Assembly: GCA_035645145.1 (NCBI GenBank)
Contig: DASQNC010000073.1
Coordinates: forward strand, 1 to 64,000
DNA from: Azospirillaceae bacterium
GTDB lineage: Bacteria > Pseudomonadota > Alphaproteobacteria > Azospirillales > Azospirillaceae
Reading direction: 5' to 3'
Length of the DNA stretch: 64,000 nt
Both the position numbers and the translations under genes were made by a program. The notes beneath the pieces were generated by a model that saw only the letters and a program-made list of their open reading frames with translations, searched no databases and had not been told where the DNA came from. Of this stretch, positions 40,303 to 47,059 are shown one piece after another (position 1 is the stretch's first letter; each line of letters begins with the position of its first letter).

Positions 40303-40365
40303 CGCCTTTCCGGTTTGCGGGGAATGGGCGTGGTGCGGAAACACGCGCCTGCGTGTTCCCCCGGC

Positions 40366-41583
40366 ATGCCGCACCAACCGCCCTCCCCCCGCGGACCGAC
40401 CGCCTATTTCCTGGGCGCCGGCGCATCCGCCGCCCAGGGTGTGCCGACGACGGAAAAGCTCGGCTTCGGGATCGCCCACTATGTCCGCGAATGCCAGTGC
40501 AACCGCGACGATCCCGTCGCGCTGGCCAGCTATCTCACGCTGGTCCACGGAGTGGGCGAGGATACCATCGCGCGCATGGCCGGGGCGTGGACCGACTATC
40601 TGCGGCGACGGACCGAGCGGCTTCCGGGCTCGGACGGATTTCCCAGCCTGATCGAACTGCTGAGCATCCTCGACCTCAGCATCGCCAAGGGCCTGAGCTT
40701 CGGCCCCTCCGAACGGCGGCGCGGCCGGGCGCCGGCGACCTTCGAGTTCGACACCCGCACGCTCGCCGATGTGCGCGAGGAGCTGACCAACGCCCTGGTC
40801 TTCACCTTCCACAAGCTGCGTTCGCGCGAGATCGAGAACCGGTACGACGAGTTCCTCGACCGCCTTGCCCCCGGCGACACCCTCATCACCACCAACTGGG
40901 ACACGTATCTGGACTTCGCCATGGCAGGGTCCGCACCGGGCCGCCGGGTGGACTACGGCATACCGGAGGCCCGCGTGTCCCTGCGCCGCGGGCCCGCCGG
41001 CACGGACACACCGCCCGCCGGCCAGCCGCCGCTGCTGAAGCTGCACGGCTCGCTGAACTGGCTGTTCTGCCCGCGCTGCGCGAACCTCCACGTCAACATG
41101 CACAAGGACATCGCCTCGTTCCGCGGCTCGGAAGCCGAGCGCCGGCGCTGGCCGTCCGACCGCTATTGCGGATGCGGGGCCGAAATGGATGCGGTGATCG
41201 TTGCGCCGTCGTTCGTGAAAACCTATGGCAACCCCCACCTGGCCCGGATCTGGACCCAGGCCCAGAAGGCGCTGGAGGCGGCGCCGCGGTGGGTGTTCAT
41301 CGGCTATTCGCTGCCCAGCGACGACCTGGAGATCCGCGCCATGCTGCTGCGCGCGCTGGCCACCCGCCGCATCCAGGCCGCACCGCCGGCGGTGGAGGTC
41401 TACACGGCCGGGTCGCGGCCGGATCTGGAAGGCCGGTACGCCGACCTTCTGCGCGGATGCCCGATGCGGATCGACGGGCGCGGGTTCGAGGGCTTCATCG
41501 AGGGCGGCGGCGGGGAGGATCAGCCGCCGGCCTTGTCCCCGGCAGACCACTCCCGCGTGCCCAGGGCTTCGGCCAGACGGTGA
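40366..41583 (+). CDS. SIR2-family protein with zinc ribbon
   Basis: A 405-residue protein with a sirtuin-type NAD-binding core. AYFLGAGASAAQGVPTTEKL is the NAD-binding GAGxS loop, TLITTNWDTYLDFAMAG the TTNxD motif, LLKLHGSLNWLFCPRCANLH the catalytic-region His plus the first zinc Cys pair, YCGCGAEMD the second pair, and VFIGYSLPSDDLEIR the late NAD-contact strand. It could deacylate proteins, or cleave NAD as defence-type SIR2 proteins do. No partner effector is adjacent. The start ATG has no clear ribosome-binding site, and a hairpin (40337-40359) lies just before it. Its 3' end overlaps the convergent methyltransferase by 64 bp. Confidence 0.82.
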   Translation: MPHQPPSPRGPTAYFLGAGASAAQGVPTTEKLGFGIAHYVRECQCNRDDPVALASYLTLVHGVGEDTIARMAGAWTDYLRRRTERLPGSDGFPSLIELLSILDLSIAKGLSFGPSERRRGRAPATFEFDTRTLADVREELTNALVFTFHKLRSREIENRYDEFLDRLAPGDTLITTNWDTYLDFAMAGSAPGRRVDYGIPEARVSLRRGPAGTDTPPAGQPPLLKLHGSLNWLFCPRCANLHVNMHKDIASFRGSEAERRRWPSDRYCGCGAEMDAVIVAPSFVKTYGNPHLARIWTQAQKALEAAPRWVFIGYSLPSDDLEIRAMLLRALATRRIQAAPPAVEVYTAGSRPDLEGRYADLLRGCPMRIDGRGFEGFIEGGGGEDQPPALSPADHSRVPRASARR

Positions 41584-43397: not shown

Positions 43398-43661
43398 ATG
43401 GCGAAGGTGCTGATGTATTCCAGCCCGTTCTGCGGATACTGCATGCGGGCGAAGGCGCTGCTGAACAGCAAAAGGGTCGAGTTCGAAGACATCGACGTCG
43501 ACGCGGAACCCCGGCGCCGGCAGGAAATGATCCAGAAGGCTGGGGGTCGGACCAGCGTCCCGCAGATTTTCATCAACGGCGTCCACATCGGCGGCAGCGA
43601 CGACCTGCACGCGCTGGATCGCACGGGGAAGCTGGACGAGATGCTGGCGGCCCAGGCCTGA
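43398..43661 (+). CDS. grxC: Glutaredoxin 3
   Basis: An 87-residue glutathione-dependent disulfide reductase. VLMYSSPFCGYCMRAKALLN holds the active site as CGYC rather than CPYC, as often in alphaproteobacteria. TSVPQIFINGVHIGGSDDLH contains the cis-Pro and glutathione-binding residues. Length and fold match GrxC. It follows comF by 120 bp; this pair is conserved in many alphaproteobacteria. Confidence 0.95.
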   Translation: MAKVLMYSSPFCGYCMRAKALLNSKRVEFEDIDVDAEPRRRQEMIQKAGGRTSVPQIFINGVHIGGSDDLHALDRTGKLDEMLAAQA

Positions 43662-44216
43662 GGGAGCCGGATTGGACGTCCGCTGGCGGGTGCGCTTGGC
43701 GCCGCGGACATTGCCGGTTGCCCCGGTCCAAAGGCGAGGCCGTCGCGCCCGAAGGGCGTCGAGGCGGCGGCCCGCCTTCTCCCGTTTGTCCGGAACACCG
43801 CACGGCACCCGGTGCGCCATGGCGGGCAGGCCGTGCGCGCCGCTTTGCATGGCCCGAAGAGACCGGAACGACGCAGCCGTTCCCGACCGGCGTCCCGAAG
43901 GCCGCGGATCGGCGAGGCCGTAGGCTTTGCCAAGCCGGACTGCCTAGATCGGCCGGGAACCGGTTGTAACCCAACCCCTTCGATAGTTCCGGCGCCCCAA
44001 CCTCCGGCTAGGGCCGGGAATGTTCCATTTCGAAGTGAGGGATAGCCCAATTATATGTAATTCCCGCTCATCACTTACCGCCATGGATCGTCTATCGGCG
44101 CGATCGTTCCGACGCTAACGTCATTTCACAATAATTTTAACAAAACCTCTTGGAGCCCGGTCGCACGTGGCAACAGCGGCTGGATCTCCGGTGGAAGATG
44201 CGTCGGAGGAAAATCC
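43662..44216. promoter_or_regulatory. Long upstream region of the hfa-like locus
   Basis: The first 370 bp are GC-rich and hold no convincing gene. From about 44040 to 44150 the DNA becomes AT-rich and includes AATTA/TAATT arms around TATG (44049-44062). This is the likely promoter and regulator-binding area for the surface-protein genes that follow; no standard -35/-10 pair stands out. Confidence 0.5.
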
Positions 44217-44579
44217 ATGCGCAAGACGATCGCGGCCGCACTGCTGCTCGGCAGCATCGCCGCCCCGGCCCAGGCGAACGGCCTGGGCGAAGACCGTCCC
44301 TTCCAGTTCCGCAGCCCGGCCGAGATTCAGGTTCGCATGAATGCGCTGGACCTGATGGAGCGCAAGAAAGGCAACTACTACGGCCAGTGGACGGCCAGCC
44401 ACAATTACACGACGTTCCAAACCTTCAACGCGGGCAACATGGTCAACATCACCAACGGCGGGACGACATCGTCCACCGGCGGTGGCGGCGGGGTGCCGGT
44501 GGGAACGCCGCTGAACCTGACCCAGACCAACAACGCGACCAACACGACGAACAACACTGGCGCGCAACCGTCGCGCTGA
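44217..44579 (+). CDS. Small exported protein, HfaA-like position and character
   Basis: A 120-residue secreted protein with a signal peptide (RKTIAAALLLGSIAAPAQA). The mature protein of about 100 residues starts acidic, then becomes rich in Asn, Thr and Gly (NYTTFQTFNAGNMVNITNGG, a GGGGG run, and LNLTQTNNATNTTNNTG). This composition is curli-like, as in the Caulobacter holdfast-anchor subunit HfaA. It is the first gene before a CsgG-type secretion gene and a large repeat protein. GGAGGAAAATCC precedes the ATG. Homology to HfaA is suggested by size, composition and order; direct similarity is weak. Confidence 0.65.
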   Translation: MRKTIAAALLLGSIAAPAQANGLGEDRPFQFRSPAEIQVRMNALDLMERKKGNYYGQWTASHNYTTFQTFNAGNMVNITNGGTTSSTGGGGGVPVGTPLNLTQTNNATNTTNNTGAQPSR

Positions 44580-44613
44580 GCCCCGCGTCGCGATCAAAAC
44601 AGGGTTTTGGACC

Positions 44614-45519
44614 ATGAAGAATTTGAAGGGTGGCCTGCGCGCCACCGTGGCGGCACTCGGCCTGCTCACCATGAGCGCCTGCGCCTCCGATGGCCAGTAC
44701 GCGGTCCAGGGCGGCACGCCTCCGACCACCAATTTCCAGCCGCTCACCGATGCCTTCGCGTGCGTCGGCCGAGAGATCCGGGGCAGTGGTCCGGTCCGCA
44801 TCGCCGTCGGCGACGTGAAGGACTACACCGGCAAGGTCAGCTTCGAGGCCGAGGAAGGCGGCTACAAGGTGACCCAGGGCGGCGCCTTGATGGTGATGAG
44901 TGCGCTCGGCCGGCTCGCGCCGCAGATCCAGCAGGTGGAGCGCTTCGACACCAGCGTCTTCCGCCAGGAACTCGATTTCGTCGGCAAGCAGATGGTGCGC
45001 GACCCCGGCCCCGGCATGGGCGTGGTGCGCGTTCCCACCGCCGGCATGATCGAGGGGGCCGACTTCCACATCCTGGGTGGCATCACCGAGGTGAACTACA
45101 ACATCCAGTCCGCCGGGGCGGAGGTGAACGTCGCCGGCATCGGCGCCGGGGCGCGGTACTTCGTGCTCAACGTCGCCGCCGACCTGCGGCTGGTGGACGC
45201 CCGGTCGCTACGGGTGGTCAAGACCGTGAGCCTGCAAAAACAGGTCGCGGGCCACGAGGTGAAGGCGAACGTCTTCCGCTTCTTCTTCGCCGACAGCCTG
45301 TTCGACATCAACGCGGGCTCCAAGCAGCAGGAACCGATCCAGATGGCCGTCCGTGCGGTCCTGAACCGCGCGACCCTGGAGCTGGTCACCGCCGCCTACG
45401 GCAAGAGTTTCGATACGTGCGTGGATGCGGCCGAACAACCGTTCAGCCTGCCCAAGCCGGATCGTCAGAGGCCCATCGTGTCCGAGGCGCCGGCGGTCAT
45501 TCGCCCGGACCGCGCCTAG
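44614..45519 (+). CDS. hfaB: CsgG/HfaB-family outer-membrane secretion lipoprotein
   Basis: A 301-residue lipoprotein with a lipobox at LLTMSACASDG. The CsgG-like fold is visible in RIAVGDVKDYTGKVSFEAEE, GGALMVMSALGRLAPQIQQV-type sequence, RFDTSVFRQELDFVGKQMV, ADFHILGGITEVNYNIQSAG, RYFVLNVAADLRLVDARSLR and VVKTVSLQKQVAGHEVKANV. CsgG forms a nonameric outer-membrane pore exporting amyloid subunits; HfaB is its relative in the holdfast anchor. It probably exports the flanking Asn-rich proteins. The name follows family plus gene order, and plain CsgG is the alternative. Confidence 0.8.
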   Translation: MKNLKGGLRATVAALGLLTMSACASDGQYAVQGGTPPTTNFQPLTDAFACVGREIRGSGPVRIAVGDVKDYTGKVSFEAEEGGYKVTQGGALMVMSALGRLAPQIQQVERFDTSVFRQELDFVGKQMVRDPGPGMGVVRVPTAGMIEGADFHILGGITEVNYNIQSAGAEVNVAGIGAGARYFVLNVAADLRLVDARSLRVVKTVSLQKQVAGHEVKANVFRFFFADSLFDINAGSKQQEPIQMAVRAVLNRATLELVTAAYGKSFDTCVDAAEQPFSLPKPDRQRPIVSEAPAVIRPDRA

Positions 45520-45533
45520 GGCATCAAAAGGCA

Positions 45534-45562
45534 CCGCCCGCCGCATGGGTGGCGGCGGGCGG
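45534..45562 (+). terminator. GC-rich hairpin between hfaB-like and hfaD-like genes
   Basis: CCGCCCGCCGC and GCGGCGGGCGG form an 11-bp perfect stem with a 7-nt loop, 15 bp after the hfaB-like stop. No T run follows. It may attenuate or end the first transcript, which would allow different expression of the large repeat protein. Confidence 0.5.
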
Positions 45563-45700
45563 GGAATTGTGCGCCACCCTCGGTCCGTTGCAGCGGACCG
45601 CCAGCAACGCGCCTGTCGCTTGGGTTTCCCTGGCAGGATGTTCCCGAACGATGGGTGCGAGGTTAACAACCAACGCTCCAAAGGGGCAAGGGAGACTTTC

Positions 45701-47059
45701 ATGAACCTCAAATCGCACCTGCTCGGCGCCGCCGCCTCCATCGCCCTCGTCACCGTCGCCGGCGCCGCTTCGGCGCAGAACGTGGTCGAGCCGGTTCAGC
45801 ACAACCACGCCCCGGTGGTCGGCCAAGTGCTGATCAACACCACGGGTGGCGGCATGCACATCCCGAACGGGATGAACGCCACCTCGCTGGCGGTCGGCAA
45901 CGCGATCTCGATCAACGTCGAGAACGCCGCCAAGTCGATCACCCCGGCCACCTATCAGCGCAACCGCTCCAGCGCCCCGGTGTCGGCCTCGCTGGACGTG
46001 AAGGTCGGCAACGCCACCCTGTCCGGCCCGGCCACGATCAACGCCACGGCGCAGGCCCAGGGCAACAGCCTCGCCACCGCGCCCACCAACGTGGGCTCGA
46101 TCAAGCGCGCCGACATCAACCAGTGGAACCAGGGCCAGATCACCTCGACCGTGTCCGTCGCGGCGACCGCCCCGATGAACCAGCTCGAGGCGGTGTCGAG
46201 CGCCCAGGGCAACAACGTCTTCATCAAGGCCAAGACGATCGGCGCCGGCGACTACATCGAGATCGAGCAGGACAACAGCGGCGCCGTCACGTCCAACCTG
46301 ACCATCGCCAAGGGCTCGGCGTTCAACGTCCTCGCCAACTCCGACAGCAAGATCAACTCCCAGGCGGTGGGCAACCTGATCTCGCTGGAAGGCACCGGCT
46401 TCGTGCCCCACGGCTACGGCCAGGGCGCCTACAACATCTCCATCGACGCCGACCGCCTGCGTCAGGAGAACATGGGCAAGATCACGGCCAACCTGAGCAT
46501 CGGCGAGGCCGGCACCGGCGGCGCGACCGAGTTCAAGAAGGTCGAGGCCTCCGCCCGCGCCATCGGCAACGTGATCAGCCTGACCGGCAAGAACTCCGAC
46601 GCCGCGCACACGTCGGTCGAGCACGTGATCCAGAAGAACAGCGGCGCGGTCTCGGCGAACGCCGTCATCCGCGACGTGAACGCCACCTCCGCGGACTTCA
46701 GCGCGGTCGCCGTCGGCAACTCGCTGTCGCTGACCGGCGCGACGGTCAACCTCGGCGAGCCCGGTTGGGACAAGTACTACGGCCCGCATGGGGTGTCGCA
46801 GCTCAACACCGCCCCGGTCACCGCAACCATGACCGGCGGCGGCACCACCAGCGTGTCGGGCGTCTACAACGTGACGGCCGCCGCGATGGGCAACGTCATG
46901 AGCGCGACCGGAACCTCCTACACCGACTACAACCTGTCGCAGACCAACATGGCGCAGGTGACGGCGGTGAACACCTTCACCACGACCGGCCTGAACGCCG
47001 GTACGCTGAACGTGTCGGCCCAGGCGGTCGGCAACTCCTTCAGCTTCACCTTGAAGTAA
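45701..47059 (+). CDS. Exported repeat protein, HfaD-like adhesin/anchor
   Basis: A 452-residue protein with signal peptide (LGAAASIALVTVAGAASAQ). The mature chain is eight repeats of about 47-65 residues. Each has a Q-x-N-x(3)-V/I-x-A/S strand (Q at 33, 86, 141, 190, 255, 311, 367, 414) and about 30 residues later an A-x-A-x-G-N-x-I/L-S strand (GN at about 66, 121, 170, 224, 289, 339, 397, 444). Cysteine is absent. Regularly spaced Q/N ladders with short beta strands suggest a beta-solenoid or amyloid-like fibre. It follows the CsgG-type gene by 181 bp behind AAGGGAGA. Size and place fit HfaD; sequence-level homology is unverified. Confidence 0.72.
   Translation: MNLKSHLLGAAASIALVTVAGAASAQNVVEPVQHNHAPVVGQVLINTTGGGMHIPNGMNATSLAVGNAISINVENAAKSITPATYQRNRSSAPVSASLDVKVGNATLSGPATINATAQAQGNSLATAPTNVGSIKRADINQWNQGQITSTVSVAATAPMNQLEAVSSAQGNNVFIKAKTIGAGDYIEIEQDNSGAVTSNLTIAKGSAFNVLANSDSKINSQAVGNLISLEGTGFVPHGYGQGAYNISIDADRLRQENMGKITANLSIGEAGTGGATEFKKVEASARAIGNVISLTGKNSDAAHTSVEHVIQKNSGAVSANAVIRDVNATSADFSAVAVGNSLSLTGATVNLGEPGWDKYYGPHGVSQLNTAPVTATMTGGGTTSVSGVYNVTAAAMGNVMSATGTSYTDYNLSQTNMAQVTAVNTFTTTGLNAGTLNVSAQAVGNSFSFTLK

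What the first reader, a model, noticed from the sequence alone, without database searches (positions are those of the whole stretch)
44217..47059. Holdfast-anchor-like (hfaABD-type) surface locus
Three genes in order encode a small Asn/Thr/Gly-rich exported protein, a CsgG/HfaB-family outer-membrane lipoprotein and a large exported repeat protein. In Caulobacter, HfaA, HfaB and HfaD anchor the holdfast. Finding the set in what looks like an Azospirillum-type genome, with no polysaccharide or stalk genes nearby, suggests an anchoring or amyloid-like adhesion system that may work differently here.
Basis: partly seen in the sequence, partly recalled or inferred. Interest (0 to 1): 0.75.

Follow-up and report, generated by a model that had tools for sequence, protein, structure and literature searches.

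The report
Holdfast-like secretion cassette lacking HfaA
Three neighbouring bacterial genes most likely build an outer-membrane channel and the repetitive sticky fibre that leaves through it; they are cousins of the anchor that Caulobacter uses for its glue, but one anchor part is replaced by a protein family missing from the databases searched, and the same gene trio also occurs in unrelated bacteria and in giant phages.

Summary
At 44217-47059 lie (1) a 120-aa exported N/T/G-rich protein, (2) a 301-aa lipoprotein of the CsgG/HfaB family and (3) a 452-aa exported repeat protein (likely start 45701). Gene 2 is HfaB-like (NCBIfam HfaB E=2.3e-65) but scores 220 bits, below the equivalog cut-off of 300 that classical HfaBs pass, and lies outside the classical HfaB clade. 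Gene 3 has HfaD-type repeats (E=4e-10, below cut-off). Gene 1 is not HfaA: the HfaA model misses it and finds no HfaA in the genome.

Gene 1 belongs to a family ('X', motif GExxxW/FQF...D-IE-KKGxYY) with no match in Pfam, NCBIfam or PDB. In X-first searches every hit sits beside an HfaB-like gene. Among loci found with the HfaB-like protein, 61 of 62 carry X upstream and 52 of 53 a long repeat protein downstream (mostly Burkholderiales, some Alphaproteobacteria). The trio also occurs in jumbo phages of Caulobacter and Brevundimonas. A same-genus genome carries its copy elsewhere and has an empty site here.

Most likely a CsgG-type channel exports the repeat fibre, with X a channel-bound accessory working like CsgF. 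That CsgF step is inference: sequence similarity to CsgF is not significant. A holdfast link is unproven.

The parts
44217..44579 (+). Gene 1, family X: exported 120-aa protein, conserved N-terminal motif NGLGEDRPFQFRSP...LDLMERKKGNYY followed by an N/T/G-rich tail; not HfaA
   Evidence: alignment A1; no family or solved structure; HfaA test; always beside HfaB-like genes
44614..45519 (+). Gene 2, HfaB-like CsgG-family outer-membrane lipoprotein (lipobox MSAC), predicted secretion channel
   Evidence: CsgG sequence; model, pLDDT 62; best PDB fold matches CsgG, E=2e-11; tree
45701..47059 (+). Gene 3, HfaD-like exported repeat protein, 8 A-x-G-N half-units alternating with 8 Q-x-N half-units; predicted secreted fibre or adhesin subunit
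43662..44216 (.). 555-nt gap upstream of gene 1, presumed to hold the promoter; no sigma-70-like site was found by the simple scan
43398..43661 (+). GrxC-like glutaredoxin, left flank; in the same-genus genome G001 it is followed about 22 nt later by the methyltransferase, without the cassette

Best explanation
The locus is a three-gene export cassette, a sister of hfaABD. Gene 2 forms a CsgG-type oligomeric channel in the outer membrane. Gene 3, a repeat protein of alternating A-x-G-N and Q-x-N half-units, is the main substrate: it passes unfolded through the channel and folds outside into a beta-rich, probably amyloid-like or beta-solenoid surface fibre or adhesin. Gene 1 (X) is also exported; its conserved N-terminal (F/W)QF plus helix-like segment is proposed to sit in the channel, as the N-terminus of CsgF does in CsgG, leaving its N-rich tail outside to hold or nucleate the fibre. 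Shown here: export signals, homology of gene 2 to CsgG/HfaB, repeat architecture, and conserved association of the three genes across bacteria and phages. Inferred: oligomeric pore, direction of transport, surface fibre, the plug role of X, and a function in attachment.
For: Gene 2: Pfam CsgG 1.7e-18 and NCBIfam HfaB 2.3e-65; CsgG structures matched by sequence (1.6e-11) and by predicted fold (2e-11). Gene 3: HfaD model 4.1e-10, regular repeat, all-beta predicted model, similar repeat protein in phage CcrPW (3e-10). Association: X upstream in 61 of 62 loci and a repeat protein downstream in 52 of 53; starting from X, 8 genomes in the class sample and 3 in the family sample (10 different genomes) have X and each has it beside an HfaB-like gene. 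The X-HfaB-repeat order recurs in phages Domovoi and CcrPW. In Caulobacter HfaB is needed to place HfaA and HfaD on the surface (PMC6707917), and CsgF lines the CsgG lumen with its N-terminal 27 residues as a loop-helix-loop (PMC7304575).
Against: Profile comparison of X with CsgF gives only the signal peptide (hhalign probability 11.6%). FQFRSP of the window resembles FQFRNP of E. coli CsgF, but shuffles reach that score in 3.7% of cases and most other X proteins do not resemble CsgF. The gene 3 model is of modest confidence and no solved fold matches significantly. The HfaB-like model is also modest (pLDDT 62). No expression or surface data.
Confidence: 0.6

Rival explanations
1. It is a diverged holdfast anchor: gene 1 does the job of HfaA under another sequence, and the trio ties a polar polysaccharide to the outer membrane.
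For: HfaB-like and HfaD-like genes are present in the same order as hfaABD. The genome has one Wza-type export gene in a polysaccharide cluster elsewhere.
Against: No HfaA by the HfaA model in the gene or genome. Gene 2 is below the HfaB equivalog cut-off and outside the classical HfaB clade. Most relatives of the cassette are in Burkholderiales, not known to me for holdfasts, and some on phages. The export gene's cluster was read by eye only and does not look like hfsDABC.
Confidence: 0.2
2. It is a curli (type VIII) system that lost or diverged CsgE/F and curlin sequences.
For: CsgG fold and family; N- and Q-rich repeats; canonical csgF-csgG-curlin loci exist in relatives of the same family.
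Against: No curlin repeat in this genome; gene 1 has no CsgF hit; in the tree canonical CsgGs of the same family are on a long starred branch apart from the HfaB-like group.
Confidence: 0.1
3. It is a phage-derived cassette whose present role is to alter the cell surface (for example receptor masking, clumping or lysis timing) rather than attachment.
For: The nearest HfaB to the window's by identity and tree path is from Brevundimonas phage Domovoi (48-49%); the trio is on several jumbo phages; other phages carry csgF-csgG and curlin-annotated genes for which lysis or aggregation roles were proposed (PMC9004378).
Against: No phage genes were recognised around the locus; GC3 matches the host; bacterial chromosomal copies are far more common, so the phages may have taken it from bacteria.
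Confidence: 0.1

Closest known systems
HfaA-HfaB-HfaD holdfast anchor of Caulobacter (PMC6707917)
   Same: Gene order small exported protein, CsgG-family lipoprotein, repeat protein; HfaB and HfaD models match.
   Different: Gene 1 is not HfaA; HfaB and HfaD scores are below the equivalog cut-offs; separate HfaB clade; no link to holdfast synthesis genes shown.
Curli / type VIII secretion (CsgG-CsgF-CsgA/B)
   Same: CsgG family and fold; in phage Melnitz the order csgF-csgG-curlin is parallel; X resembles CsgF in place and in a short FQF motif only.
   Different: No curlin repeats in the genome; X does not match CsgF by profile; repeat unit about 47-65 residues, not the curlin repeat.
HfaB-like genes of Caulobacter and Brevundimonas jumbo phages (phrog_20175)
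   Same: Same trio X, HfaB-like, A-x-G-N/Q-x-N repeat protein; gene 2 48-51% identical over the aligned part.
   Different: On phage genomes; annotated there as hypothetical, CsgG-like or HfaB; function unknown.

Membership tests
HfaABD holdfast anchor | HfaA-family first protein | tested here: not met
   NF037934 misses gene 1 and the whole genome but finds HfaA in L024/L025 loci at about 1e-25
HfaABD holdfast anchor | HfaB equivalog | tested here: not met
   220 bits against a cut-off of 300; the 19 genomes over the cut-off score 310-414; outside the classical clade, SH-aLRT 99
HfaABD holdfast anchor | HfaD equivalog | tested here: inconclusive
   E=4.1e-10 but 39.6 bits against a cut-off of 100; same repeat type
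HfaABD holdfast anchor | holdfast polysaccharide synthesis and export genes in the genome | tested here: inconclusive
   One Wza-type gene, in a polysaccharide cluster on another contig; no hfs-specific test was available
Curli / type VIII secretion | CsgG-family channel | tested here: met
   Pfam CsgG above cut-off (67.1 against 20.8)
Curli / type VIII secretion | CsgF | tested here: not met
   Pfam scan of 15 X proteins gives no CsgF; profile comparison not significant
Curli / type VIII secretion | curlin repeat substrate | tested here: not met
   No PF07012 match in the genome
X-HfaB-repeat cassette (defined here) | X upstream, HfaB-like in the middle, A-x-G-N/Q-x-N repeat protein downstream | tested here: met
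X-HfaB-repeat cassette (defined here) | nonameric pore with X bound in the lumen | not testable with these tools

The most novel reading that the evidence does not exclude
X is an unrecognised plug and nucleator, working like CsgF, of a distinct branch of CsgG-type secretion that exports HfaD-like fibres independently of holdfast, is spread patchily over Alpha- and Betaproteobacteria, and is used by jumbo phages as well.
Probability: 0.35. Interest if true: 0.7.

Novelty: new variant of a known kind. Interest (0 to 1): 0.5.

Why it matters
Profile names ('HfaB', 'CsgG/HfaB family') would lead annotators to call this a holdfast anchor. The evidence instead points to a separate, recurrent cassette in which two of three proteins have no curated family. 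It gives a testable pair (X plus HfaB-like channel) for asking how CsgG-type channels choose and nucleate their fibres without CsgF or HfaA, and it raises the question of why giant phages of stalked bacteria carry the same set.

Tried and rejected
HfaA identity of gene 1: rejected by model and genome search. CsgF homology of X: profile comparison and shuffles do not support it; kept only as a functional proposal. Known-family search for X and for the Burkholderiales repeat proteins: nothing. PHROGs for genes 1 and 3: nothing. phmmer with gene 3 against the collected ORFs found only itself, probably because of composition correction; pairwise BLAST did better but repeats inflate such scores. 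Fold search with gene 3 gave no significant match; the first two (FapC and a CsgA) have E above 0.4 and are not evidence. Viral-contig scans added only CcrColossus, CcrPW and one fragment. tblastn of gene 1 against phages found nothing, so the phage X proteins were recognised by position and by the X profile, which included them.

Full report
What is there. Three + strand genes stand at 44217-44579, 44614-45519 and 45701-47059. The first and third have signal peptides, the second a lipobox (read from the sequence). Third-position GC of 0.88-0.93 agrees with the rest of the window. For the third gene the mechanical ORF starts at 45425, but the signal peptide begins at ATG 45701.

Gene 2. It matches Pfam CsgG (1.7e-18), NCBIfam HfaB (2.3e-65, 220 bits, cut-off 300) and CsgG (1.1e-11). 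CsgG structures match by sequence. An AlphaFold2 model from 13 sequences (pLDDT 62, pTM 0.58) has CsgG as its best PDB matches (E=2e-11). In 385 genomes of the class, 19 pass the HfaB cut-off with 310-414 bits, and a second group scores 141-234 bits; the window's protein is in the second. A rooted tree gives a classical HfaB clade (SH-aLRT 99), an X-cassette clade (97), a phage pair (98) and the window unresolved near the base; the nearest row by path and identity is phage Domovoi (48%). This was a quick tree with one support measure.

Gene 1. It is not HfaA. The HfaA model finds HfaA in two other loci at about 1e-25 and only Caulobacter among the controls, but not gene 1 nor anything in this genome. 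Instead it shares the mature N-terminus GExxx(W/F)QF...D-IE-KKGxYY with proteins just upstream of HfaB-like genes. Fifteen members hit no Pfam or NCBIfam family convincingly and no PDB entry. I call the family X. Of 62 named loci fetched with gene 2, 61 carry X and the exception is at a contig edge; of 53 with enough downstream sequence, 52 carry a long repeat protein, the exception being that same locus. These loci were found with gene 2 patterns and about ten of them trained the X profile, so the count is partly circular. The independent test is X-first: in the class sample 8 genomes and in the family sample 3 genomes (10 different) have X, and in each X lies beside an HfaB-like match (with 40, 41). 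None of the 19 genomes above the HfaB cut-off has X. A Loktanella plasmid also shows an X-like protein directly upstream of a 30%-identical HfaB-like gene; this was read by eye.

Gene 3. Eight [AV].GN motifs, 47-65 residues apart, alternate with eight Q.N motifs. The HfaD model matches at 4.1e-10, below cut-off. Invariant alignment columns with Burkholderiales and phage repeat proteins are these motif residues. The model is all beta, best in the C-terminal half (pLDDT 61, pTM 0.68), with no significant PDB match.

Spread. In the window's family 2 of 13 sampled genera have X (3 of 81 genomes). The trio is found in Comamonadaceae, Alcaligenaceae, Sphingomonadales, a Rhodobacteraceae-type and a Mesorhizobium genome, on a Variovorax plasmid and in jumbo phages. 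In G001, same genus, the cassette lies beside a cytochrome b gene, while grxC and the methyltransferase are about 22 nt apart with no cassette. The HfaB-like proteins of the two are 48% identical, GrxC 74% and LysC 70%. This suggests separate acquisition or relocation; it does not prove transfer.

Mechanism. HfaB is required for surface placement of HfaA and HfaD in Caulobacter (PMC6707917). CsgF lines the CsgG channel with its first 27 mature residues as loop-helix-loop (PMC7304575). By analogy gene 2 is the channel, gene 3 the fibre and X the channel-bound accessory. The last step is the weakest: profile comparison with CsgF aligns only signal peptides, and the FQFRSP/FQFRNP match has a shuffle frequency of 3.7% for the window and is mostly absent in other members.

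Holdfast. No HfaA, sub-cut-off HfaB and HfaD, and no holdfast genes nearby among the neighbours recognised by eye. The only Wza-type gene is in a polysaccharide cluster on another contig. Holdfast synthesis was not tested with Hfs sequences, so absence is not shown.

Literature. Only four open papers held contain both CsgG and HfaB, and none was found linking HfaB with Burkholderiales. The curli survey PMC3521004 found that many CsgG-model hits are likely paralogues and does not mention holdfast or hfa. The library lacks most subscription journals, so prior description cannot be excluded.

Noticed in passing
L097 4483-7012 (phage Domovoi), L098 4389-6754 (phage CcrPW), L170 (CcrColossus): Jumbo phages of Brevundimonas and Caulobacter carry X, HfaB-like and repeat genes in a row, annotated mostly as hypothetical.
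   Followed up: partly
L026, L027, L028 (genome G049): One genome has five HfaB-like copies, with other repeat proteins, another small exported protein and LuxR-type regulators nearby.
   Followed up: no
L099 4842-5561 and 6620-7636 (phage Melnitz-3): Two genes beside csgF-csgG are annotated as curlin-associated repeat proteins, whereas the phage paper (PMC9004378) states that csgA and csgB are lacking.
   Followed up: no
L036, L043, L058, L066 and other Burkholderiales/Sphingomonadales loci: Their HfaB-like proteins have an extra C-terminal domain of about 150 residues that looks OmpA-like by eye; the window's protein lacks it.
   Followed up: no
L191 3285-5170 (Variovorax plasmid); L021 6374-7132: An EAL-domain gene or a LuxR-type response regulator lies upstream of some cassettes, suggesting regulation by c-di-GMP or a CsgD-like factor; none is seen next to the window's copy.
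   Followed up: no
L022 7474-8115: The same-genus cassette has an additional 214-aa exported repeat protein between the HfaB-like and the HfaD-like gene.
   Followed up: no
window 40315-41583: ORF that by eye resembles a SIR2-like domain protein (AYFLGAGASAAQGVPT), possibly a defence gene.
   Followed up: no
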